DNA from: a virus
DNA: 22,919 nucleotides
Virus record (IMG/VR): IMGVR_UViG_3300025603_000704
Location: 1-22,919 of that record
Strand: one strand, 5' to 3'
Numbering within the stretch: position 1 is the stretch's first letter; each line of letters starts with the position of its first letter. The position numbers and the translations under genes are program-made. Positions 1,778 to 22,919 of this stretch are shown one piece after another. The notes beneath the pieces were generated by a model. That model did not search any database. It saw only the letters and a program-made list of their open reading frames with translations, and had not been told where the DNA came from.

Positions 1778-2054
1778 TGTACTTTAAATGTGGACACGCT
1801 AACATGAAATAACTCATGTCTTTTGTTTCTTCAAAACCGACAGTTAATACTTGAGTTAACTTGTTATTACTGTCTAAGCTTACGTTCTTACCAGCATAAA
1901 ATCTGTTCTTTAAATGCTGTTTAATCCATTTAATTAAACTGTCTTCCAAATTATATGTCATAGGTAAATTAACGTACTCAAAGTGTGGCGGAGCCGATTT
2001 GACTTGCCTCACTTCAAATACATTTAATGGATTAGGTGTTTTATTTTTTATCAT
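1773..2054 (-). CDS. Conserved hypothetical phage protein, 93 aa
   Basis: The start at 2054 overlaps the stop of the VWA/metallopeptidase gene by ATGA, so the two are translationally coupled. The protein starts MIKNKTPNPLNVFEVRQVKS and has a central amphipathic helix (EDSLIKWIKQHLKNRFYAGK, about residues 37-56), a beta-rich stretch and a short C-terminus. No signal peptide or membrane segment is visible. I do not recognise a characterised family. The tight coupling suggests that it works with or near the metallopeptidase protein, or is just a co-expressed small phage gene. Confidence 0.65.
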   Translation of the reverse strand: MIKNKTPNPLNVFEVRQVKSAPPHFEYVNLPMTYNLEDSLIKWIKQHLKNRFYAGKNVSLDSNNKLTQVLTVGFEETKDMSYFMLACPHLKYK

Positions 2055-3361
2055 GCAGCCGCATCGTAGTGTACTGATGTACCAAACGGTCCTTCTAAGT
2101 TCTTATCACGGTTGCTGTGGATAACAAATACTGTATCACAGTAGTCTGGATCACCCCAGCTATCCCATGCATAACCATCTGTAAACATAATTAGTTTCTT
2201 AGGAACATAATCTTGTTCTTTCATGTATGTCCAGTTCGCCATAAAGTCAGTGCCACCGCCACCCATTAGTTCGTAGTCTAACAAGTCTTTGCCATCGTTT
2301 GCAGCAAAATCTTCTTCATTGTATACGTCTGTGTCAAAGCACCATACTTTAATATTATAGTCTGGAAACTCGTCCATAATACCTTTAACTTCTCCTAGGA
2401 AGTCTTTACCTTGTACTTCACCAATTGAGCCGCTCATGTCTATACAAACAGCAACATCAATAGTGTCTTGGAAGTCCATGCTAGGTAATATAGCACCGCT
2501 CATTTGTCCTTTGCGTGAAGGACGACTAAATGTATAATCGCTTCTAATTGAACTTTGTACTGACTGCCGAATAATTTCACGCCAGTTCATCTTAGGCTCT
2601 GTAAGTTCTTTAATCATACGTGCAACTGCGCCTGGAACATTACCTGCTCCTGCACTCTGTGCCGCTGAAATCATATTCTCTTTGATCTCATCTTTAATTT
2701 GTTTTACTTCTTCTTTGCTGTACTTAGGCTTAGACTTGCTAGTAGCATTTCCGTTAACATCCTTACCAACTTCGCCATCGCTAACACCTTCGCCATCGTC
2801 TTCTGAGTCGAGGTGCTCGTCTAGCATTTCACCTAATTGCTTTAAGTACTCTTCGCCCATCTCTTTTGCTTTTTCGTATACATCATCATATACTTCTTCG
2901 CTTGTCCAGCCTTCATATTTAAAGTCCTGGTAGCATTGTACAATACTTGGTATAGTACCAATACGATCACGTACTAGTGTATTGTTTACAATATAGTCTG
3001 CGCTAATGTTATAGATCATAGGATCACGGTCATCTCTACGACCCATGTGATCAAATACCATATGCAAAATTTCGTGTGCAACAACAAACTCAATCTCTTT
3101 ATTATTCATCGCATTAAAGAATTGTGTGTTGTAGTACAAGTTACGACCATCAACGGCAGCAGTACCAAGCCACTCATCTGCTGCAACAATACGCAAACGT
3201 GTAGCCATGTTGCCAAAGAAAGGATGGCGCAATAGTAAACCAATACGTGCCGTAATAATACGGTCCATAACTATTACACGCATTTCTTCTAGTGCTTCTG
3301 GAGTAATATCTGGGTCCGGAGTAAAGTTTTTTAGTTCACTTTGTGTATCTTTAGTAGCCAT
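2051..3361 (-). CDS. Metallopeptidase-like plus VWA domain protein (DUF2201-type), partner of MoxR ATPase
   Basis: This 436-aa protein has two recognisable parts. The N-terminal part carries a zinc-peptidase motif HEILH (residues 96-100) with a downstream ISADYIVN segment that may supply a third ligand. The C-terminal part is a von Willebrand A fold with a MIDAS metal site: DMSGS (D308, S310, S312), GGGGTDF (T371) and FTDG (D395). A charged linker rich in Asp, Glu and Lys (about 180-235) separates them. In bacteria, metallopeptidase/VWA proteins of this class are encoded beside MoxR AAA+ ATPases and are thought to act with them as remodelling or chaperone machines. The same pairing is seen here with the gene at 3578-4663. 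Its own strong sigma70-type promoter lies at 3393-3421. The actual substrate is unknown, and catalysis is not proved by the motif alone. Confidence 0.85.
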   Translation of the reverse strand: MATKDTQSELKNFTPDPDITPEALEEMRVIVMDRIITARIGLLLRHPFFGNMATRLRIVAADEWLGTAAVDGRNLYYNTQFFNAMNNKEIEFVVAHEILHMVFDHMGRRDDRDPMIYNISADYIVNNTLVRDRIGTIPSIVQCYQDFKYEGWTSEEVYDDVYEKAKEMGEEYLKQLGEMLDEHLDSEDDGEGVSDGEVGKDVNGNATSKSKPKYSKEEVKQIKDEIKENMISAAQSAGAGNVPGAVARMIKELTEPKMNWREIIRQSVQSSIRSDYTFSRPSRKGQMSGAILPSMDFQDTIDVAVCIDMSGSIGEVQGKDFLGEVKGIMDEFPDYNIKVWCFDTDVYNEEDFAANDGKDLLDYELMGGGGTDFMANWTYMKEQDYVPKKLIMFTDGYAWDSWGDPDYCDTVFVIHSNRDKNLEGPFGTSVHYDAAA

Positions 3362-3392: not shown

Positions 3393-3421
3393 ATTATAGC
3401 ACTGATTAGTATATATGTCAA
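3393..3421 (-). promoter_or_regulatory. Sigma70-type promoter for the VWA/metallopeptidase gene
   Basis: The minus strand has TTGACA (3416-3421), a 17-bp spacer, and TATAAT (3393-3398) preceded by TGC, an extended -10. This is a full consensus match. It lies 32 nt upstream of the gene start, just after the stop of the small lipoprotein gene. Confidence 0.85.
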
Positions 3422-3424
3422 CCT

Positions 3425-3562
3425 TTAATACTGGTCTTCATCATCACCAGACATCTTTTCTTTGGACCATTCAGCAGTTGCAGTAATATCCTTACCAAGT
3501 CCGCCTACAGTTGAACAAGCACCTAGTGCCATTGCCATTAGTACGATTAAAAATAATTTCAT
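3425..3562 (-). CDS. Entericidin-like small lipoprotein, 45 aa
   Basis: The ATG at 3562 has AGGAG 7 nt upstream, and the frame ends with TAA at 3425. The product has a short positive N-terminus, a hydrophobic stretch and a lipobox (LGAC, C16): MKLFLIVLMAMALGAC, then STVGGLGKDITATAEWSKEKM and an acidic tail. The order of lipobox, C-S/N-T-V, G-x-G-K-D-I and a short amphipathic helix is the pattern of the entericidin A/B family, tiny lipidated cell-envelope peptides linked to bacteriolysis and its control. The mature lipopeptide would be 30 residues in the host membrane. The gene starts 15 nt after the MoxR stop, so it is probably co-transcribed with MoxR. Alternatives are a spanin-like or superinfection-exclusion lipoprotein. 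Lipoprotein identity is firm; entericidin kinship is by motif only. Confidence 0.78.
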   Translation of the reverse strand: MKLFLIVLMAMALGACSTVGGLGKDITATAEWSKEKMSGDDEDQY

Positions 3563-3577
3563 TTGAATCTCCTATTA

Positions 3578-4663
3578 TTAAGCTTCTTGTGCGGCTTTAA
3601 TATACTTACCATAACGCTCATGGAATTCATCAAAACACGCTACTTCATCTGGATCAATGGGCAAACCGTACTGTGTTAGTGCAAGCTTGATGCCCATAAC
3701 AACTAGTTCAGTATCAAAGTTATCCATTGAAAAGCGCAGGAAGTTGTTCACTTTGTCATCGAACTTCTTGTCGCCTGCGTCACACGCTTCTTTAAGTTCA
3801 TAGCATAAGGACACAGTTAGTGAGTACATAGCACTAATCTCTTTGGAATTCATCTCTTTTACTTTGCCTGCTAGGATGTCAGTTGGATTAGGCATGCTAG
3901 ATGCAACTTTACGGTGCGCCATAAACTTAACTGCTAGTCCTTCACCAACTGCACCTGCTACTAAGTCAGTAGTAGTTGCTTCGTCTAGGTCATCGTCTAG
4001 CAATTCGCTAACAAAAGACCAACTACGAGGAGTTGCAAAGCTACGGCTTGAACTCTTAGGATCAAAGTCATATAAGTCTTTCTTTGCAAAGGTTAAGTAG
4101 CCAATAACGTCTGTGTTGATGTTGTTGTTAACACTCCACTGGAACCAGTCGTCAAAGTTAACAGAAAGTTCTAAGTGGATAAAGCGGTTAGCTAACGGAG
4201 CAGGCATCCTATAAGTAACACCCTTGTCAGCTTCACGGTTACCAGCCGCAACAATCATTACGTTGTCTGGTAGCTTGTAAGTGCCTACACGACGGTTAAG
4301 AATTAGTTGATATGCTGCCGCTTGCACACTAGGTGCTGCTGAGTTCATTTCGTCTAGGAATAGTATAATGTGATCAAATTGAGCAGCAAACTCTTCGCTT
4401 GGTAATTCACTAGGCGCACCCCACACCATAGTACCTGAGTTGCTGTCGAAGTATGGAATACCTTTAATATCTGTAGGTTCCCAAAGCGACAAACGAATGT
4501 CAATTAAATGTGAATTTGAAAAAGTGTCACAGATCTGTGATACAATATCAGATTTGCCAATGCCCGGAGCTCCCCAAAGGAAGATAGGACGTTTCTTTTT
4601 TAGTGCATGGGTAATACTGTTTTTTGCGCCATTTGGACTAACTGTGCGAGTTGAAGTATCCAT
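3578..4663 (-). CDS. MoxR-family AAA+ ATPase
   Basis: The 361-aa protein has the full AAA+ set: Walker A GAPGIGKS (31-38), Walker B IILFLDEMN (98-106), sensor 1 AAGNRE (138-143), and PAPLANRF (153-160) with the arginine-finger-type Arg. The LDEMN and PAPLANRF forms are typical of MoxR proteins, ring ATPases that remodel or activate partner proteins, usually VWA-domain partners. The metallopeptidase/VWA gene lies two genes downstream, which supports a working pair. A sigma70-type promoter is at 4709-4736, and the only ribosome-site-like sequence before the ATG is a loosely spaced GAGG. The C-terminal third (about 200-361) has no motif I can name. Target in the infected cell unknown. Confidence 0.88.
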   Translation of the reverse strand: MDTSTRTVSPNGAKNSITHALKKKRPIFLWGAPGIGKSDIVSQICDTFSNSHLIDIRLSLWEPTDIKGIPYFDSNSGTMVWGAPSELPSEEFAAQFDHIILFLDEMNSAAPSVQAAAYQLILNRRVGTYKLPDNVMIVAAGNREADKGVTYRMPAPLANRFIHLELSVNFDDWFQWSVNNNINTDVIGYLTFAKKDLYDFDPKSSSRSFATPRSWSFVSELLDDDLDEATTTDLVAGAVGEGLAVKFMAHRKVASSMPNPTDILAGKVKEMNSKEISAMYSLTVSLCYELKEACDAGDKKFDDKVNNFLRFSMDNFDTELVVMGIKLALTQYGLPIDPDEVACFDEFHERYGKYIKAAQEA

Positions 4664-4708: not shown

Positions 4709-4736
4709 ATTATAGCACCATTACAGCATTTGTCAA
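4709..4736 (-). promoter_or_regulatory. Sigma70-type promoter for the MoxR gene
   Basis: The minus strand has TTGACA (4731-4736), a 16-bp spacer, and TGC-TATAAT (-10 at 4709-4714). The sequence around and after the -10 (TGCTATAATATATGTATA) is identical to that of the promoter at 3393-3421, suggesting duplication or a shared control element. Confidence 0.8.
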
Positions 4737-4745
4737 CCATTTTCT

Positions 4746-4776
4746 AAAAAAAGAACCTATTACAAATCAATAGGTT
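4746..4776 (-). terminator. Rho-independent terminator after the 127-aa gene
   Basis: On the minus strand an 8-bp perfect stem (AACCTATT / AATAGGTT, arms at 4769-4776 and 4754-4761) with a 7-nt loop is followed, after one C, by seven T residues (4752-4746). The stem starts within the stop codon of the 127-aa gene and lies just upstream of the MoxR promoter, so it separates two transcription units. Confidence 0.8.
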
Positions 4777-8049: not shown

Positions 8050-9138
8050 TTACCATCCTATTTTTTCCCACGGTACGTCTTTGTCACCAAAGTGTCCGTA
8101 AGTACAATTGTTGCTATAACTATTATAGTTGAATAAATCAAATCTGTCAATGATTCCTTTTGGACTTAGGTCAATTTCGTCACGTATAAATCTTTCGATA
8201 CTGCGATTGTGTCCGTTTGAATCAACGTAAATGCTTGTAGGCTGCTTAATACCAATGGCATAGCTTAGTTGTATATTACACCAATCTGCCATTTCGTCTG
8301 CTACTACATTCTTTGCTAACCATCTTGCCATGTATGCAGCACTACGATCTACTTTTGTAGGATCTTTACCACTAAAGGCGCCGCCGCCATGAGGAGCAAA
8401 ACCGCCGTAAGTATCAACAATAATTTTACGACCTGTAACTCCGGTATCACCATCGGGCCCACCAATAACAAAATTGCCAGTAGGGTTGAGATGCCACACA
8501 GTATTTTCATCAATTAAATCTCCAAGTTCTTCCATTGCAGCTAGTTTACACAAATGTCTTGCTTCTTCTATACAGCCTTCTGAGTGCTGAGTACTTATAA
8601 CAATTTGATCAATGCGTTTGATAACACCTTCACGTCTTGCACCGTTGTACTCAACACTTACTTGACTCTTAGCATCAGGACCTAATACATTGCCACGCTT
8701 TGTTTTTAAATTTTCTAGTATCTTGTGGCTGTAATGAATAGGCGCAGGCATCATACTATGTGTATGATTGCAAGCATAACCAAACATAAGCCCTTGATCA
8801 CCTGCACCAAAGTCGTCTGTACCTAGTGCAATGTCTGCACTTTGTTCATGTATTTCATTATATAACTTTAACTTGTGCCAAGAAAATCCATTCTGATCGT
8901 AGCCAATTTCTTTAACTTTGTTTCGAACAATTTGTTCTACTTGATCTCTAGTTACATTAAAGTTCTTAACTTCGCCTGCTAGTGTAACCATGTTGGTAGT
9001 TACTAGTGTTTCAACTGCTACTCGTGTTGTTGTATCGCCTGCGGCTAATCCAGCATCAACAAGCGCATCAGATATTTGATCTGCTACCTTATCTGGGTGT
9101 CCGTCACTTACTGATTCGCTTGTAAAAATGTGGTTCAT
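8050..9138 (-). CDS. metK: S-adenosylmethionine synthetase
   Basis: The 362-aa protein is a clear MetK, making SAM from methionine and ATP. It shows FTSESVSDGHPDKVADQ at the N-terminus (ATP/methionine site), FGAGDQGLMFGYA (hexapeptide P-loop-like region) and GGGAFSGKDPTKVDRSAAY in the C-terminal domain. Bacterial MetK is about 380-400 residues, so this is a compact form. AAGGA lies 6 nt before the ATG, which overlaps a small upstream ORF by ATGA. Its position directly after queE suggests it feeds SAM to that radical-SAM enzyme and to any phage methyltransferases, although general boosting of host methylation or polyamine supply is also possible. Confidence 0.95.
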   Translation of the reverse strand: MNHIFTSESVSDGHPDKVADQISDALVDAGLAAGDTTTRVAVETLVTTNMVTLAGEVKNFNVTRDQVEQIVRNKVKEIGYDQNGFSWHKLKLYNEIHEQSADIALGTDDFGAGDQGLMFGYACNHTHSMMPAPIHYSHKILENLKTKRGNVLGPDAKSQVSVEYNGARREGVIKRIDQIVISTQHSEGCIEEARHLCKLAAMEELGDLIDENTVWHLNPTGNFVIGGPDGDTGVTGRKIIVDTYGGFAPHGGGAFSGKDPTKVDRSAAYMARWLAKNVVADEMADWCNIQLSYAIGIKQPTSIYVDSNGHNRSIERFIRDEIDLSPKGIIDRFDLFNYNSYSNNCTYGHFGDKDVPWEKIGW

Positions 9139-9245
9139 ATTAGTCCTTTTTGTCTCATCTCATCTGGGTCCATAGGCTTCTTAGCTTGTGCCTTCATAGC
9201 CTTTTCGTGTTGTTCGTTTTTGTATGATTCACGTACCCCATGCAT
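9135..9245 (-). CDS. Possible small ORF between queE and metK, 36 aa
   Basis: A short frame begins at an ATG inside the queE end (9245) and stops at 9135 with an exact ATGA overlap with metK, the coupling style used throughout this window. The product is hydrophilic and helical (MHGVRESYKNEQHEKAMKAQ, then a PMDPDEMRQKGLI tail). The ribosome site before the ATG is weak (CGGAA). Without this ORF a 90-base gap would separate queE and metK, which is unusual here. No function can be assigned. Confidence 0.45.
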   Translation of the reverse strand: MHGVRESYKNEQHEKAMKAQAKKPMDPDEMRQKGLI

Positions 9246-10191
9246 TTCCGAATAAACTGATGTGTAGCCTTGGGGTGAAGCGCCATCCCTTTTCCATGCA
9301 GACTTCTGCCACTTCTTTAACGTTAAGGACATACTCTTCCGAACGTCCCCCAAGCGGCATACAATATACTGGACACTCAACGCCTGCGCCACGGTATGCT
9401 TGCACAGCTCTACCAGCTTCATCAATATCTGAACGATCAGCAACGACAAATTTAAGATACATGTCGCTACCATCAACAGTGGAGTAATTAAGAGCAACGT
9501 TAGGCTTAATAGCATCTTCCCAAGATTCTCCGCTAACGGATAGTTTAGGCGAACAACTCCATGTGACTGTAATTCTATTGCTATCGTTGAGATAGTGGTA
9601 TAAGTCATTATGTAATACTTGTGTAGTGTTTGTTTCAAATGTGACATTTTTTAGATCCTGCATACGTGGATGCTCAAATAGTTCGACATACAATCGTTGC
9701 CACGCCAACAACGGCTCGCCACCTGTCATAATTAAGTGGATGTCTTGTCCGTTATCCATTGTCCACTTGCCTTCTGGAGTAAGGGATAACAAATGTTCAA
9801 CAACTTCTTCAACTTCTGCAAGTTTGTTAAAGTTTTTAAATTCAGGATAGATACTTGCATACGTATCACAACCTGTATGAATAATAGGCAAGTCTGTAAA
9901 CTTTTCGGTCCTTGCAATAATACCATCATCAAGTAAGTCTTTTACTTCTTGATTGTATCTTTGACCATCTGCTTGTTTTTCTGCACGACTAGGTTCATCT
10001 TTACCAAGTCCAAAGTTCATGCAACGAAAGTTACAACCGAAGGTACGTAGGAATACACTAGGCACTCCTACAAACTTACCTTCGCCTTGTACGCTGTAAA
10101 ACGCTTCTGAATATCTTAGTTTCATACTTGACTTTCTGTTTACTGCTTCATGCGATGGATAGCCTTTTTCAAATACTGGAGATTCTGTCAT
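9229..10191 (-). CDS. queE: 7-carboxy-7-deazaguanine synthase (QueE), radical SAM, with split cluster motif
   Basis: QueE converts 6-carboxy-tetrahydropterin to 7-carboxy-7-deazaguanine with SAM and a [4Fe-4S] cluster. The sequence shows FYSVQGEGKFVGVPSVFLRTFGCNFRC (cluster Cys C53 and C57), CDTYAS (C108) which matches the canonical CDTxYA after the third Cys, MTGGEPLL (SAM-binding GGE), FETNTT, and the C-terminal RFTPRLHISLFGN typical of the family. The third Cys is separated from the second by 50 residues rather than 2, an apparent insertion (about 58-107). The 320-aa length exceeds typical bacterial QueE (about 210-240). AGGAG lies 8 nt upstream, and the start overlaps folE by ATGA. Confidence 0.88.
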   Translation of the reverse strand: MTESPVFEKGYPSHEAVNRKSSMKLRYSEAFYSVQGEGKFVGVPSVFLRTFGCNFRCMNFGLGKDEPSRAEKQADGQRYNQEVKDLLDDGIIARTEKFTDLPIIHTGCDTYASIYPEFKNFNKLAEVEEVVEHLLSLTPEGKWTMDNGQDIHLIMTGGEPLLAWQRLYVELFEHPRMQDLKNVTFETNTTQVLHNDLYHYLNDSNRITVTWSCSPKLSVSGESWEDAIKPNVALNYSTVDGSDMYLKFVVADRSDIDEAGRAVQAYRGAGVECPVYCMPLGGRSEEYVLNVKEVAEVCMEKGWRFTPRLHISLFGNAWGT

Positions 10192-10871
10192 CGTGCAAAC
10201 TCCTGTTGCAGTTTAATGTTATCGAAAAACTCTTTCTTTGTGCCCATGTCATCTTTAAATGCACCACGTAGTACAGTTGTTTGTGTTAAACTGCTAGTTG
10301 CCATAATGCCTCTGTTCTCACAACAACCGTGTGTTGCTTGTATATAAACACCTAAGTGTTCTGCATCAGTCGCCGACTGTATTTCACGAGCAATGTCATT
10401 TGCAAGTTCTTCTTGTAGTGTACCGCGTCTAGCACACCACTGTGCAATACGTGTGTACTTAGACAGTCCAATAAGTTTATCTGCTGCAATAATACCAATG
10501 TATGCAACGCCTGCTACTGGCTGGTGATGATGCGAACACATGCTTTTAAGTTCGCTACGTACTACTAGCATGCCTGCATAGCGATCATCGCTATCATTAG
10601 GAAATGCTGTTGCCGCCGGTGCAGGGTCGTATCGTCCTGCCATAATTTCATTGTAGTACATTTTAGCAAGACGCTTTGCTGTGCCTTTACTATTAGGATC
10701 GTTAAACCTATCAATTAATAGTGCGTCTAATACACCTTCAAATGCAATAGATGCTTCGTTGATTAATTCTTCTTTGTCACCAGTCTCTAATACTTCACTG
10801 ATATTGTCACCAGCCCAATGGCGAATGTTTGCTTCTTCAAGCCGGGCTTTGATTTGTACTATTTTGCTCAT
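10188..10871 (-). CDS. folE: GTP cyclohydrolase I
   Basis: FolE opens GTP to 7,8-dihydroneopterin triphosphate, the first step of folate and 7-deazaguanine synthesis. The 227-aa protein has the zinc-site motif MCSHHHQPVAG (C112, H115) and ATHGCCENRG (H181, C183), plus IGLSKYTRIAQWCARRGTLQEELANDIA, the conserved core. E. coli FolE has CEHH, so the Glu is Ser here, which is not a zinc ligand. The ribosome site GGAG lies 6 nt before the ATG, a consensus-type promoter is at 10927-10955, and queE follows with an ATGA overlap. The setting with queE points to 7-deazaguanine supply rather than folate. Confidence 0.94.
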   Translation of the reverse strand: MSKIVQIKARLEEANIRHWAGDNISEVLETGDKEELINEASIAFEGVLDALLIDRFNDPNSKGTAKRLAKMYYNEIMAGRYDPAPAATAFPNDSDDRYAGMLVVRSELKSMCSHHHQPVAGVAYIGIIAADKLIGLSKYTRIAQWCARRGTLQEELANDIAREIQSATDAEHLGVYIQATHGCCENRGIMATSSLTQTTVLRGAFKDDMGTKKEFFDNIKLQQEFAR

Positions 10872-18386: not shown

Positions 18387-18595
18387 TATTCCAGTCCTTT
18401 TTGTATTAGATAACTATTAATTCGATGCATTTCGTCTTTTAAATAAAGTTTCATAGTTTTCATTCTACGAACCTCCTCAGTTACGTATGCATTATTATAC
18501 AACGATTCTATCTCTTCGTCAAGCTCTCTGTGCTTACGCTTTAATTCGTCGTAGTGTGCGCGGAGTTTATCTTCGACTTCATCATAGTTGCTCAT
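18386..18595 (-). CDS. DUF465/YdcH-like small coiled-coil protein, 69 aa
   Basis: The protein reads MSNYDEVEDKLRAHYDELKR, then KHRELDEEIESLY, a short loop (NNAYVTEE) and VRRMKTMKLYLKDEMHRINS. The KHRELDEEI...LK..KLYLKDEM pattern is that of DUF465 (YdcH/SlyX-like) helical-hairpin proteins, short coiled coils of unknown function. GAGGA lies about 8 nt before the ATG, which overlaps the dpdA-like stop by 14 nt. The C-terminal helix is shared with the gene at 17339-17788. Confidence 0.78.
   Translation of the reverse strand: MSNYDEVEDKLRAHYDELKRKHRELDEEIESLYNNAYVTEEVRRMKTMKLYLKDEMHRINSYLIQKGLE
18388..18488 (-). repeat. 101-bp dispersed direct repeat, copy B (DUF465-like module)
   Basis: This is the partner of 17341-17441. 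In this copy the segment is the natural second helix of a complete DUF465-like protein, so it is the likely donor. Confidence 0.8.
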
Positions 18596-20141
18596 CCTGG
18601 AGTTCCTCTAATTTAGTTTCATCTAAAGTTTCTTGATCTTCGACTTCTTCAGGCTCTTCTATATCAAACAATGCATTAAAGTGTGTACTAGAGTTCACAG
18701 ACTTCTTACCTACTGCACCGCGTGTGCCAGGAATCTGCATCCATAACCTACTATTGTCTTCGACTATCTTGTTTGCTTCTTCTCTAGTAGTAGCAGCAAA
18801 AACAGCATCAATAACATCGCCAACAAATAGTTGCTCATGCTTTTCATTTACTAACATTGAAGGAACTTTGCCTGCATCGTATTGACGATTTGCTTCTTGC
18901 ACAGAGTTTAAATGCATCCATACATTATGTGCCATTAAGATTGCATAGCTAAAGCTATCCCAGGAAGTTTTGCCTTCCTTACCGATCCTGTTTAGATCAC
19001 CTGGTGCATAAATGCAAACATCTTTTACAGTAGTATGTTCCATTACAGGACTAGTAGCAAAGTTTTTGTGAATACCATCTTGTACTACTGCATCCTTAAA
19101 TAATCTAGTATCTTGCGAATACTTTTTGTCATCCATTGCTGCTGCCATTCGATAAGACCATTTGCCACGATCTTCGATTTCAGTCTCAGTATAAACTTGA
19201 CCATTTGCAGTTGCAAGGAAAGGACTAGCACAATCAAAGCTAACAGTAAACTTAGGATTATGATACTTGCGTACAGCACGTTGAATGTCAGTTAACACTA
19301 ATGCCCACTCTAATTTACTAGTACCTAAGAAGTGCATCCAGTCATGTAAGCCTTCTTCCAATAATCCGTCAAAGCGCAATGCAACTAGACGTTTTAGAAC
19401 TAAGTGGACATCACACATGTTTTGTCCGCCCATTCCCCAACCATTAAAATGATTGTCTGGATATATGGCAGGGTCGCAATACTTCTTCATACGATCATAC
19501 CAATCGTCTGCGTCAGTATGATTCTCGCCTTGTAGCACATTTAAGAATTTGCAGTTGCCATTACGATTGTTAATAAAATAATCATTATTAATTTCTGTAG
19601 CTCGACATGCTTCTTCGTATGTGCTAATTCCTGTAGCTTTTTGACCTTCTGGACTACGAGCAACCCATGCTGGAATATCTAAACACATTCCATAATCCAT
19701 TAAAGCATCCATCCAAGTTAAAACTTGCTTACGCTTTTTCATTGCAGCAGGACAATTCGGATCTTTCCAATCGCCGGGCCACTTGCCTTTACCAATCTGG
19801 AAACCGCCTGAATCGCCTAGTACAAAACTTTTGCCATCACGTGGACGAGTTCTAAACATTTCTTCTCGGTCATCTTGTTTGTTCAAGTCGAGATTAGCAT
19901 GTCCTGCAGAGTACAAGCACCACTTGTAATATAACAGTGGGCTTGTAGGATCTAAGTAATTAATACTTTCTACATCATTTGTAAAGTTTGTAGGCAATCT
20001 GGATGGTTCGATGTACGGGAATCGTTTTCTTTGATACCCGATAAATGCGGAGTAAAAACCAGATGTTGCTGGTAAAAACAAGGCATAATCTTTTTGTGTT
20101 GCTGTTAAGTCTGTATTCATGCTCTCCGCCGGTCCATCCAT
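18582..20141 (-). CDS. dpdA: DpdA-like DNA/tRNA-guanine transglycosylase
   Basis: The protein (519 aa from the ATG at 20141, immediately after the clamp stop; a second ATG at 20120 is possible) has the transglycosylase barrel motifs: GDSGGFQ (109-115; the Asp acts on the base), FLNVLQGEN (199-206), FNGWGMGGQ (232-240, matching the GyaiGG motif), MHFLGTSK and SFDCASPF with the likely nucleophile D303. Bacterial Tgt exchanges tRNA guanine for preQ1. DpdA homologues do this in DNA with preQ0-type bases. No CxCxxC..H zinc-site cluster is seen at the C-terminus, and the acidic tail (EEPEEVEDQE) is unusual. With folE, queE and the QueD-like gene in the window, exchange into phage DNA is the best reading; tRNA as target is not excluded. 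Confidence 0.8.
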   Translation of the reverse strand: MDGPAESMNTDLTATQKDYALFLPATSGFYSAFIGYQRKRFPYIEPSRLPTNFTNDVESINYLDPTSPLLYYKWCLYSAGHANLDLNKQDDREEMFRTRPRDGKSFVLGDSGGFQIGKGKWPGDWKDPNCPAAMKKRKQVLTWMDALMDYGMCLDIPAWVARSPEGQKATGISTYEEACRATEINNDYFINNRNGNCKFLNVLQGENHTDADDWYDRMKKYCDPAIYPDNHFNGWGMGGQNMCDVHLVLKRLVALRFDGLLEEGLHDWMHFLGTSKLEWALVLTDIQRAVRKYHNPKFTVSFDCASPFLATANGQVYTETEIEDRGKWSYRMAAAMDDKKYSQDTRLFKDAVVQDGIHKNFATSPVMEHTTVKDVCIYAPGDLNRIGKEGKTSWDSFSYAILMAHNVWMHLNSVQEANRQYDAGKVPSMLVNEKHEQLFVGDVIDAVFAATTREEANKIVEDNSRLWMQIPGTRGAVGKKSVNSSTHFNALFDIEEPEEVEDQETLDETKLEELQDEQL

Positions 20142-20142
20142 A

Positions 20143-20886
20143 TTACTTGCTCTGCGCTGGTAGAATATAATCGTATGTTGCCATACCTGAATCAACTGCA
20201 ATCTTCATTGCACCTTGATCGCTAATGCTCATAGTAATATCACCGCTCAGATTCAAAACAGCTTGTACTGCTGCTACGGGCCAACTCCAAGTATGCTGCA
20301 ATGTACCTGCTACTGCATTTTGGAATACAAACTCGCCTGCGTGTGTACTTGCATCGCCGAAGCTAAACACTAAGTCACTTACACCAGCAGTTGCTTTGGT
20401 AGTAACATTAAATGTAGGCTCTTCGGTATGTGCCGCACTCATTAACTTCATACGTCCGATACTAGCAACACTTGGCTTAAATTCTACAGCCCATGCAGCA
20501 CCTTTAAATGTAACATTTTTTAACTTCTCTTCGATAATTGCTTTGTTCATAAAGCGATAATCATTTTCAAAGTCACCTGCGTTGTTTTCAAAGTGAATAT
20601 GCGTTGGCATAGTTTCGCCATTACGTTCTGCTGTAATTACATCAATCTTAGCATCTTTCTGATACTCGGGATTTTTCAAATGCAATGCAAGTTTGTCTAA
20701 GTTAGGCATACCAAATGTGCCAACAAACTCAGTAACTGGTGTGTGGGTAGTTGCAGATAAGATAACACTCCTATCCTCTGCCATTGAATTAACACTAGTA
20801 GTACCATCTTCCGATGTGACTTTGACTAGTGGTAGGAAACCTAGTGCATGTGTGTGTGCTACTACGTCTTGTAAGATATCTTTCAT
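20143..20886 (-). CDS. 45: gp45-like DNA sliding clamp
   Basis: The 247-aa protein resembles marine T4-like clamps: a central strand-helix NPEYQKDAKIDVITAERNG, a VTEFVGTFGMPNLDKLALHL segment in the place of the gp45 domain-1 core, and a C-terminus of GDITMSISDQGAMKI then AVDSGMATYDYILPAQSK that fits the end of a clamp domain. T4 gp45 is 228 residues and forms a trimer that holds the polymerase and, in T4, activates late transcription. GGAG lies 7 nt before the ATG, a sigma70-type promoter is at 20911-20939, and the polymerase gene is nearby. Sequence similarity to T4 gp45 is weak by eye, so some doubt remains. Confidence 0.72.
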   Translation of the reverse strand: MKDILQDVVAHTHALGFLPLVKVTSEDGTTSVNSMAEDRSVILSATTHTPVTEFVGTFGMPNLDKLALHLKNPEYQKDAKIDVITAERNGETMPTHIHFENNAGDFENDYRFMNKAIIEEKLKNVTFKGAAWAVEFKPSVASIGRMKLMSAAHTEEPTFNVTTKATAGVSDLVFSFGDASTHAGEFVFQNAVAGTLQHTWSWPVAAVQAVLNLSGDITMSISDQGAMKIAVDSGMATYDYILPAQSK

Positions 20887-21975: not shown

Positions 21976-22919
21976 TTACTCTCCAAAGTCAAACAAACTA
22001 GTAAATGTGTTATGACGCTTAGTATCCTCTAATGGATAGTTAAGCACACCAATTAAGTTGTCTAACTTATTATCAATAATAGTTTCCGCCATCGCTGCAT
22101 CATCAAACGGAAGTTCTTTGAACCATTCCGGCAAACGCATTTGATCTGTCGGATACGCTACGCTTGTATAGCCTAATGGATTAGGTTTTAGTTTGCAAAC
22201 AATAACTTTCATACCGTCTACAACTTCTTCAGAATACTTGTCGCCGTTCATTCGACGTAGTGTATTCCAGTTAATACTTGCTCGAACGTGTCCGGGCATG
22301 TTAGCTTTACCTTGCTTCTCTTCTAAGCGGCGATAGTGTCCAACTTTGTTTGCACGTTTAGGTGAACCTTTCTCCCAACCCGGGCGCTCATGGAACTGTT
22401 GACGGAACTCTGTAATACGCTCAAGTACATCAGTACGCGGCTTATCAGTAAGTACCATAAGTAATAGCTCGCTTAGAAACTCCTGCATAAACACAGGTGT
22501 ATCCGACCTACGTAAGTCTAAGCCCATTGCTTTTACTTTACCAACTTTACCGTCAATGTCTGTTCTAAAGCCTTCGTTGTCAACTACTAATGCTGCATAA
22601 CGCTTCTTAGTAATATACAAGCCCGACTGTGCAACAATCTCGCGTCCTGCTGCAATAACAGTTGCACGACTCTTTGGACAATGATGCGACTTTGCCATCA
22701 TCTCAGTAAACGTACCATCAACTGCGCCACATATCTGATCATACAATGTAATTGCTTTATCAGTATCCCATTCGATCTTACCTGATTCGATATCATTTTG
22801 TAAAGTAGGCCAAGCACTAAAGTAGACCGAATCTGTGTTATGAACCAAATGTCCATTTGCAAAGAAAAACGGATCGTCTTCGGCAATGCTTATATCATAT
22901 ACGTACTGGTCGCCTGTGT
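21976..22919 (-). CDS. 43: Family-B DNA polymerase (gp43-like), C-terminal part, with the end of an intein
   Basis: The open frame enters from the window edge. After the intein end, the polymerase resumes at TDSVYFSAWPTL, the second half of the catalytic motif C (YGD/TDS). Downstream are ITKKRYAALVVDNEG (KKRY motif), KVGKVKAMGLDLRRSDTPVF, typical of T4-like polymerases, and a C-terminus of FTSLFDFGE, which fits the clamp-binding C-terminal peptide of such enzymes. About 280 residues follow the motif, as expected for T4 gp43. The N-extein and most of the intein lie outside the window. The gene is followed by small ORFs, then the epimerase and clamp. Confidence 0.9.
   Translation of the reverse strand, partial: TGDQYVYDISIAEDDPFFFANGHLVHNTDSVYFSAWPTLQNDIESGKIEWDTDKAITLYDQICGAVDGTFTEMMAKSHHCPKSRATVIAAGREIVAQSGLYITKKRYAALVVDNEGFRTDIDGKVGKVKAMGLDLRRSDTPVFMQEFLSELLLMVLTDKPRTDVLERITEFRQQFHERPGWEKGSPKRANKVGHYRRLEEKQGKANMPGHVRASINWNTLRRMNGDKYSEEVVDGMKVIVCKLKPNPLGYTSVAYPTDQMRLPEWFKELPFDDAAMAETIIDNKLDNLIGVLNYPLEDTKRHNTFTSLFDFGE
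22837..22919 (-). other. Intein C-terminal segment in the DNA polymerase
   Basis: The frame at the edge reads YVYDISIAEDDPFFFANGHL then VHN directly before TDSVYF. This is the intein block F/G pattern (VYDl.v......FfaNG..vHN) ending in the splice-site His-Asn, with Thr as the +1 nucleophile. Only about the last 27 intein residues are visible. Confidence 0.88.

What the first reader, a model, noticed from the sequence alone, without database searches (positions are those of the whole stretch)
3425..3562. Entericidin-like toxin/antidote lipoprotein carried by a phage
Seen: a 45-aa frame with a lipobox (LGAC), good ribosome site, and C-S-T-V-x-G-x-G-K-D-I as in entericidins. It is short enough to be missed by gene callers. 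Known: entericidins are tiny envelope lipoproteins tied to programmed bacteriolysis. Inference: the phage may use it for lysis timing, lysis inhibition or superinfection exclusion.
Basis: partly seen in the sequence, partly recalled or inferred. Interest (0 to 1): 0.68.

Follow-up and report, generated by a model that had tools for sequence, protein, structure and literature searches.

The report
Entericidin-like lipoprotein family in phages
A real 45-residue lipoprotein gene in an uncultivated virus turns out to belong to a widespread, apparently undescribed family of tiny phage lipoproteins that share only the front half of bacterial entericidins; it probably alters the envelope of the infected cell, but nothing here shows that it is a toxin, an antidote or a lysis timer.

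Summary
Bases 3425-3562 (minus strand) encode a 45-aa prelipoprotein with an AGGAGA ribosome site and the lipobox LGAC; it is the only lipobox ORF with a ribosome site in the window. It is under purifying selection (mature-part dN/dS 0-0.14). Relatives occur in 155 IMG/VR contigs; C, T, GxGKD and one K are invariant in 28 diverse members. An entericidin profile separates this family cleanly from other lipoproteins (E 1e-7 to 6e-5 against about 1). But resemblance stops at mature residue 16: the second half reads AEWxKEKM instead of GGxAI. The window protein misses the Pfam and NCBIfam cut-offs and has no ecnA/ecnB partner: entericidin-like, not a shown entericidin. It sits in the moxR transcription unit behind a perfect sigma70 consensus promoter, where most relatives have a terminator. 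In freshwater phages it is the middle of a tight three-gene operon: 42-aa membrane protein, this lipoprotein, 185-aa lipoprotein. No PHROG or Pfam family covers these genes, and no isolated phage was found with the lipoprotein. Most likely role, inferred: an early-made outer-membrane peptide that conditions the infected cell's envelope, superinfection exclusion being one form; lysis is less likely.

The parts
3425..3562 (-). CDS, 45-aa entericidin-like prelipoprotein (mature part 30 aa, starting at Cys16)
3568..3573 (-). Ribosome binding site AGGAGA, 5 nt before the ATG
3515..3526 (-). Lipobox L-G-A-C (residues 13-16; Cys16 is the predicted lipidated residue)
   Evidence: sequence; Cys invariant in 28 family members
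3485..3502 (-). G-L-G-K-D-I motif (residues 21-26), the part shared with entericidins
3452..3475 (-). A-E-W-S-K-E-K-M (residues 30-37), the phage-family signature that replaces the GGxAI half of entericidins
4709..4736 (-). Perfect sigma70 consensus promoter (TTGACA-N16-TATAAT) of the moxR-lipoprotein transcription unit; terminator-like hairpin with T run just before it at about 4747-4776
3578..4663 (-). Upstream gene in the same unit: MoxR-type AAA+ ATPase (phrog_1297); stop codon 15 nt before the lipoprotein ATG
3393..3421 (-). Perfect sigma70 promoter of the next gene, 3 nt after the lipoprotein stop codon
2051..3361 (-). Downstream gene: DUF2201 metallopeptidase / VWA-like protein, own promoter

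Best explanation
A phage accessory gene for a tiny lipoprotein. Shown: it is a conserved protein-coding gene; it belongs to a large phage family whose mature N-terminal half (CxTVxGxGKD) matches bacterial entericidins and whose second half (AEWxKEKM) is its own; it lies in the moxR transcription unit behind a perfect sigma70 consensus promoter, at a site where most relatives have a terminator. Inferred: the signal peptide is cut at Cys16, the protein is lipidated and, with Ser (not Asp) at +2, carried to the outer membrane as a 30-aa lipopeptide with a short helix. Made early by host RNA polymerase, it conditions the envelope of the infected cell through a conserved envelope component or the membrane itself, rather than executing lysis; keeping out a second phage is one plausible form. 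In other phages it is the middle gene of a coupled operon with a 42-aa membrane protein and a 185-aa lipoprotein, which suggests work on the envelope together with partners; the window copy stands alone.
For: Coding and conserved. Specific entericidin resemblance: mature-only hhalign probability 96.9 over 16 columns; an HMM from 12 bacterial entericidins scores members at E 1e-7 to 6e-5, best unrelated lipoprotein about 1. Same junction in relatives carries a terminator and promoter instead; present in three scattered moxR lineages. Sigma70 promoters: moxR unit and within 1.2 kb upstream in 66 of 85 family loci, none in shuffles, no TATAAATA late motif. Operon partners: 42-aa membrane protein overlapping by 4 nt in 66 of 93 loci, 185-aa lipoprotein in 68 of 99. 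Invariant residues across unlike phages point to a conserved target.
Against: Function, localisation and timing are untested. Sigma70-like promoters do not prove early expression in this lineage. Partner genes are absent from this fragment, so the operon argument may not carry over. The predicted helix is not clearly amphipathic in the window protein, so a direct membrane action is not supported by sequence. In some jumbo-phage contigs endolysin- and holin-like genes lie about 3 kb away, which keeps lysis open.
Confidence: 0.5

Rival explanations
1. Superinfection exclusion in the strict sense (Cor/Llp type): the lipoprotein binds one outer-membrane receptor from the periplasmic side and stops adsorption of further phages.
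For: Small phage lipoprotein with early-type promoter; T5 Llp is a proven case of a small phage lipoprotein jamming FhuA (PMC9586334); weak matches to Cor (phrog_1119, E 0.045) and Llp (8a60, E 0.061).
Against: Those matches fall mainly in the signal peptide. The invariant motif in phages with very different gene content does not fit a receptor-specific blocker. Mature part is only about 25-30 aa.
Confidence: 0.22
2. Lysis accessory: an EcnB-like peptide that weakens the outer membrane, or an EcnA-like peptide that delays lysis.
For: Entericidin-type N-terminal half; E. coli EcnB overproduction raised bacteriolysis and EcnA countered it, as reviewed in PMC7296081; endolysin-like or holin-like genes near it in six or seven loci and GH108 in four; Melnitz, which has a relative of the 185-aa partner, has a cell wall hydrolase next to that gene.
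Against: No lysis gene near it in the window; moxR unit with sigma70 promoter; no late-promoter motif within 1.2 kb upstream in 85 loci; Atu8019 of the entericidin family is not lytic.
Confidence: 0.18
3. O-spanin or part of a short trans-envelope spanin-like pair with the overlapping 42-aa membrane protein.
For: Genes for a single-membrane-segment protein and the lipoprotein overlap by 4 nt in 66 of 93 loci, as many spanin pairs do; weak Rz-like PHROG matches of one relative (E 0.017).
Against: Mature lengths of about 20 and 25-30 aa cannot bridge the periplasm as known two-component spanins do; not proline-rich; sigma70 rather than late promoter context; no partner in the window.
Confidence: 0.04
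4. Partner of the flanking MoxR/VWA pair, acting with it on the membrane.
For: Gene lies between moxR and vwa; RavA-ViaA of E. coli act at the inner membrane (PMC9489729).
Against: Most moxR-vwa loci lack it; the family mostly sits in other neighbourhoods.
Confidence: 0.06

Closest known systems
Entericidin EcnA/EcnB family (Pfam PF08085; NCBIfam NF007487, NF007319, NF052367)
   Same: Tiny lipoprotein; mature part begins C-x-T-[VI]-x-G-x-G-x-D; clear profile similarity over residues 1-16 of the mature part.
   Different: K fixed in GxGKD, Ser/Gly mostly at +2 instead of Asn, second half AEWxKEKM instead of G-[GN]-x-[AI]; window and relatives below every curated cut-off tested; no ecnA-ecnB tandem; phage-borne.
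T5 Llp and phi80/N15 Cor superinfection-exclusion lipoproteins
   Same: Small phage lipoproteins, early type of promoter.
   Different: No sequence relation beyond the signal peptide; Llp and Cor are about 77-80 aa and receptor-specific (own knowledge; Llp-FhuA from PMC9586334).
Atu8019 of Agrobacterium (entericidin-family lipoprotein)
   Same: Small lipoprotein, mature part 32 aa, annotated as entericidin (PMC7296081).
   Different: Bacterial; linked to vesicle docking, no lytic activity seen; direct alignment with the phage family not made here.
Methylophilales phage Melnitz gp73-gp77
   Same: Carries a distant relative of the 185-aa partner (gp76), a small membrane protein gene before it (gp75) and a relative of a marine neighbour gene (gp65).
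   Different: Has no member of this lipoprotein family at that place; gp73 is an unrelated tiny lipoprotein.

Membership tests
Entericidin EcnA/B (PF08085) | Short lipoprotein with lipobox and mature start C-[N]-T-x-x-G-x-G-x-D | tested here: met
   Sequence; hhalign 96.9 over 16 columns. Asn at +2 is Ser here.
Entericidin EcnA/B (PF08085) | Second half of the domain: invariant Gly at mature position 15 and following small/hydrophobic residues | tested here: not met
   Gly15 invariant in 12 bacterial entericidins, Ala/Ser followed mostly by E/D-W/Y/F in the phage family; alignment ends at 16.
Entericidin EcnA/B (PF08085) | Score above the curated cut-off | tested here: not met
   Window: no match at E 10; matching relatives 13.9-20.0 bits against 23.3; NCBIfam EcnB 16.8 against 94. 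A Nitrospirota entericidin reaches 32.4 in the same Pfam scan.
Entericidin EcnA/B (PF08085) | Tandem ecnA-ecnB toxin-antidote pair, as in E. coli | tested here: not met
   E. coli pair seen; only one lipobox ORF in the window. The plasmid entericidin loci read here show one annotated copy each, so this is a feature of the E. coli locus rather than of the whole family.
Entericidin EcnA/B (PF08085) | Bacteriolytic or antidote activity | not testable with these tools
   Needs expression; contested even for bacterial members.
Superinfection-exclusion lipoproteins (Cor, Llp) | Sequence homology beyond the signal peptide | tested here: not met
   phrog_1119 E 0.045; 8a60 E 0.061 over residues 1-35.
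Superinfection-exclusion lipoproteins (Cor, Llp) | Early expression | tested here: inconclusive
   Perfect sigma70 consensus promoter upstream of moxR, no terminator between; timing not measured.
Superinfection-exclusion lipoproteins (Cor, Llp) | Blocks adsorption or DNA entry of a second phage | not testable with these tools
   Needs a host and phages.
O-spanin | Adjacent inner-membrane spanin gene with a long periplasmic domain | tested here: not met
   None in the window; the overlapping gene of relatives has only about 20 residues beyond its membrane segment.

The most novel reading that the evidence does not exclude
The lipoprotein is the conserved core of an undescribed phage envelope device: a 42-aa membrane peptide, an entericidin-like outer-membrane lipopeptide and a 185-aa lipoprotein, translationally coupled and expressed early, used by many uncultivated phages to remodel or seal the envelope of the infected cell; the window's phage kept or acquired only the lipopeptide.
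Probability: 0.35. Interest if true: 0.68.

Novelty: new variant of a known kind. Interest (0 to 1): 0.5.

Why it matters
Entericidins are conserved in bacteria but poorly understood. A phage family that has kept their front motif under strong selection, in over a hundred contigs, would show which part matters and give a simple system (a 30-aa lipopeptide with two coupled partners) in which to test what entericidin-type peptides do. These genes lie below the size cut of many gene callers and outside PHROGs and Pfam, so a common phage envelope function may have been overlooked.

Tried and rejected
Pfam, PHROGs and NCBIfam for the window protein: no match above any cut-off. tblastn of four family forms against 50,697 phage records: no family member; the hits were chance matches or, in Acinetobacter phage MD-2021a, an ordinary entericidin between dapE and a DUF1853 gene, as in Acinetobacter itself; the S-SSM7 hit lies inside a 307-aa protein. 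First DNA motif was one codon too short and found unrelated proteins; corrected. The scan of genome contigs found only ordinary Nitrospirota entericidins, but its patterns were narrow, so absence from bacterial genomes is not shown; a wider search by class could not be run because no suitable genome handle was at hand. Structure of the 185-aa partner: moderate model (pLDDT 72), no significant fold match, so no function is claimed; I had provisionally called it LPP20-like in the notes, which no tool supports. Rfam: nothing. Amphipathic-helix idea: hydrophobic moment of the window segment is no higher than in shuffles.

Full report
Observation. No other ORF with a lipobox and a ribosome site exists in the window. 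The window is a 22.9-kb IMG/VR virus fragment. Its DNA polymerase and other proteins are closest, at 34-51%, to Pseudomonas jumbo phages such as PA5oct and to Sinorhizobium phage Phosso, so it comes from an uncultivated lineage with unknown host.

Reality of the gene. Six contigs carry an identical protein, one a 91% and two records a 73% identical one, all at the same junction. Between the three forms the mature part has dN/dS of 0, 0.14 and 0.12; these rest on few sites but agree.

Setting. The gene stands 15 nt after the stop codon of a MoxR-type ATPase and 3 nt before the -35 box of the next gene, a DUF2201 metallopeptidase/VWA protein. In about 80 viral loci with the same moxR gene, the short gap normally holds a hairpin terminator and a sigma70-like promoter; only the window group, L088 and L025/L026 hold the lipoprotein gene. 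In L088 a hairpin without a T run is still seen by eye before the gene; in the window it is gone. On a moxR tree the carriers form three lineages; flanking genes and the lipoprotein differ by similar amounts between the window and L088, while the lipoprotein differs more than its flanks from L090. Gain by recombination and repeated loss both fit. The moxR-lipoprotein unit starts at a perfect TTGACA-N16-TATAAT.

A phage family. Motif and profile scans found relatives in 155 viral contigs. In 28 diverse members C, T, two G, K, D and a later K are invariant. The consensus is C-[SGN]-T-[VI]-x-G-x-G-K-D-[IVM]-x-x-x-A-[ED]-[WYF]-[TS]-K-[ED]-K. These contigs were collected with patterns built on the front motif, so its invariance is partly by selection; the conserved AEW/KEKM half, which lies outside the patterns, and the silent-site divergence are not.

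Relation to entericidins. Bacterial entericidins from E. coli, plasmids and Nitrospirota share C-N-T-x-x-G-x-G-x-D-[IV] but then have G-[GNS]-x-[AS]-[IVL]. Profile comparison of mature parts alone gives 96.9 probability over 16 columns. As a control, an HMM from the bacterial proteins was run on 148 distinct lipoprotein candidates of the fetched loci: all top hits were family members (E 1e-7 to 6e-5; the one exception in rank is a family member cut at the wrong Cys), and the best other lipoprotein had E about 1. Yet Pfam and NCBIfam cut-offs are missed. I therefore call it entericidin-like: probable shared ancestry or motif, not demonstrated membership.

Neighbourhoods elsewhere. In 66 of 93 loci the lipoprotein start overlaps by 4 nt the stop of a 42-aa membrane protein (MKAFIAGTIFGLVLATVGFSGIARMLDKGVDTVKTQSQELAK and variants), and in 68 of 99 a 185-aa lipoprotein follows at once. 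Neither has a PHROG or Pfam family beyond the lipid-attachment motif. A sigma70 promoter with at most one mismatch lies within 1.2 kb upstream in 66 of 85 loci, often perfect and about 180 nt before the gene, against none in shuffles; TATAAATA, the T4-type late motif, is absent. Downstream genes of these phages include ClpP, Band 7/SPFH and Bax1-I family proteins. Jumbo-phage contigs (L091 and kin) carry endolysin- and holin-like genes about 3 kb away.

Mechanism. Shown are the gene, its selection, its family and its place in the moxR unit. Export, lipidation, outer-membrane location and early timing are inferred from lipobox, +2 residue and promoters. AlphaFold gives one helix over residues 2-38 at moderate confidence, which says little for so short a protein. 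Early-type promoters, varied neighbourhoods and one fixed motif argue for conditioning the envelope by way of a widespread target, rather than for lysis or a receptor-specific block; this is a judgement, not a result. Literature held here has no report of phage entericidin-like proteins that I could find, and the one small entericidin-family protein whose lytic activity was tested in a paper read here was not lytic (PMC7296081).

Limits. The fragment is incomplete, hosts are unknown, isolates are lacking, and the search for bacterial chromosomal relatives was narrow.

Noticed in passing
window 21976-22917 (-): The DNA polymerase frame begins with what looks like the end of an intein (...FFFANGHLVHN/TDSVYF), placed in the DTDS motif of family B polymerases; read by eye.
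   Followed up: no
window 9229-10871 and 18582-20201 (-): GTP cyclohydrolase-like, QueE-like radical SAM (both by eye) and a 539-aa protein found only in PA5oct-like, Phosso and one Vibrio phage (Tgt-like by eye): possible 7-deazaguanine DNA modification set; a SAM synthetase-like gene is at 8050-9138.
   Followed up: partly
window 2051-3361 (-): PHROGs labels this family (phrog_1314) HNH endonuclease, while Pfam shows a DUF2201 metallopeptidase plus VWA-like domain (E 7e-44 and 1e-14); the PHROG name looks wrong.
   Followed up: partly
window, minus strand: 3421, 4736, 7260, 8150, 14106, 20939: Six perfect sigma70 consensus promoters (TTGACA, N16-17, TATAAT), all on the coding strand, none on the other.
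   Followed up: partly
L113, L146, L183, L185, L159 and others: Freshwater phages with this lipoprotein operon also carry Band 7/SPFH, Bax1-I (TMBIM) and ClpP genes within a few kb.
   Followed up: partly
L237 4123-5657 (phage Melnitz gp73-gp76): Partly syntenic block in a cultured marine phage: an unrelated 40-aa lipoprotein (gp73), a small membrane protein (gp75) and a distant relative of the 185-aa lipoprotein (gp76), annotated only as hypothetical.
   Followed up: partly
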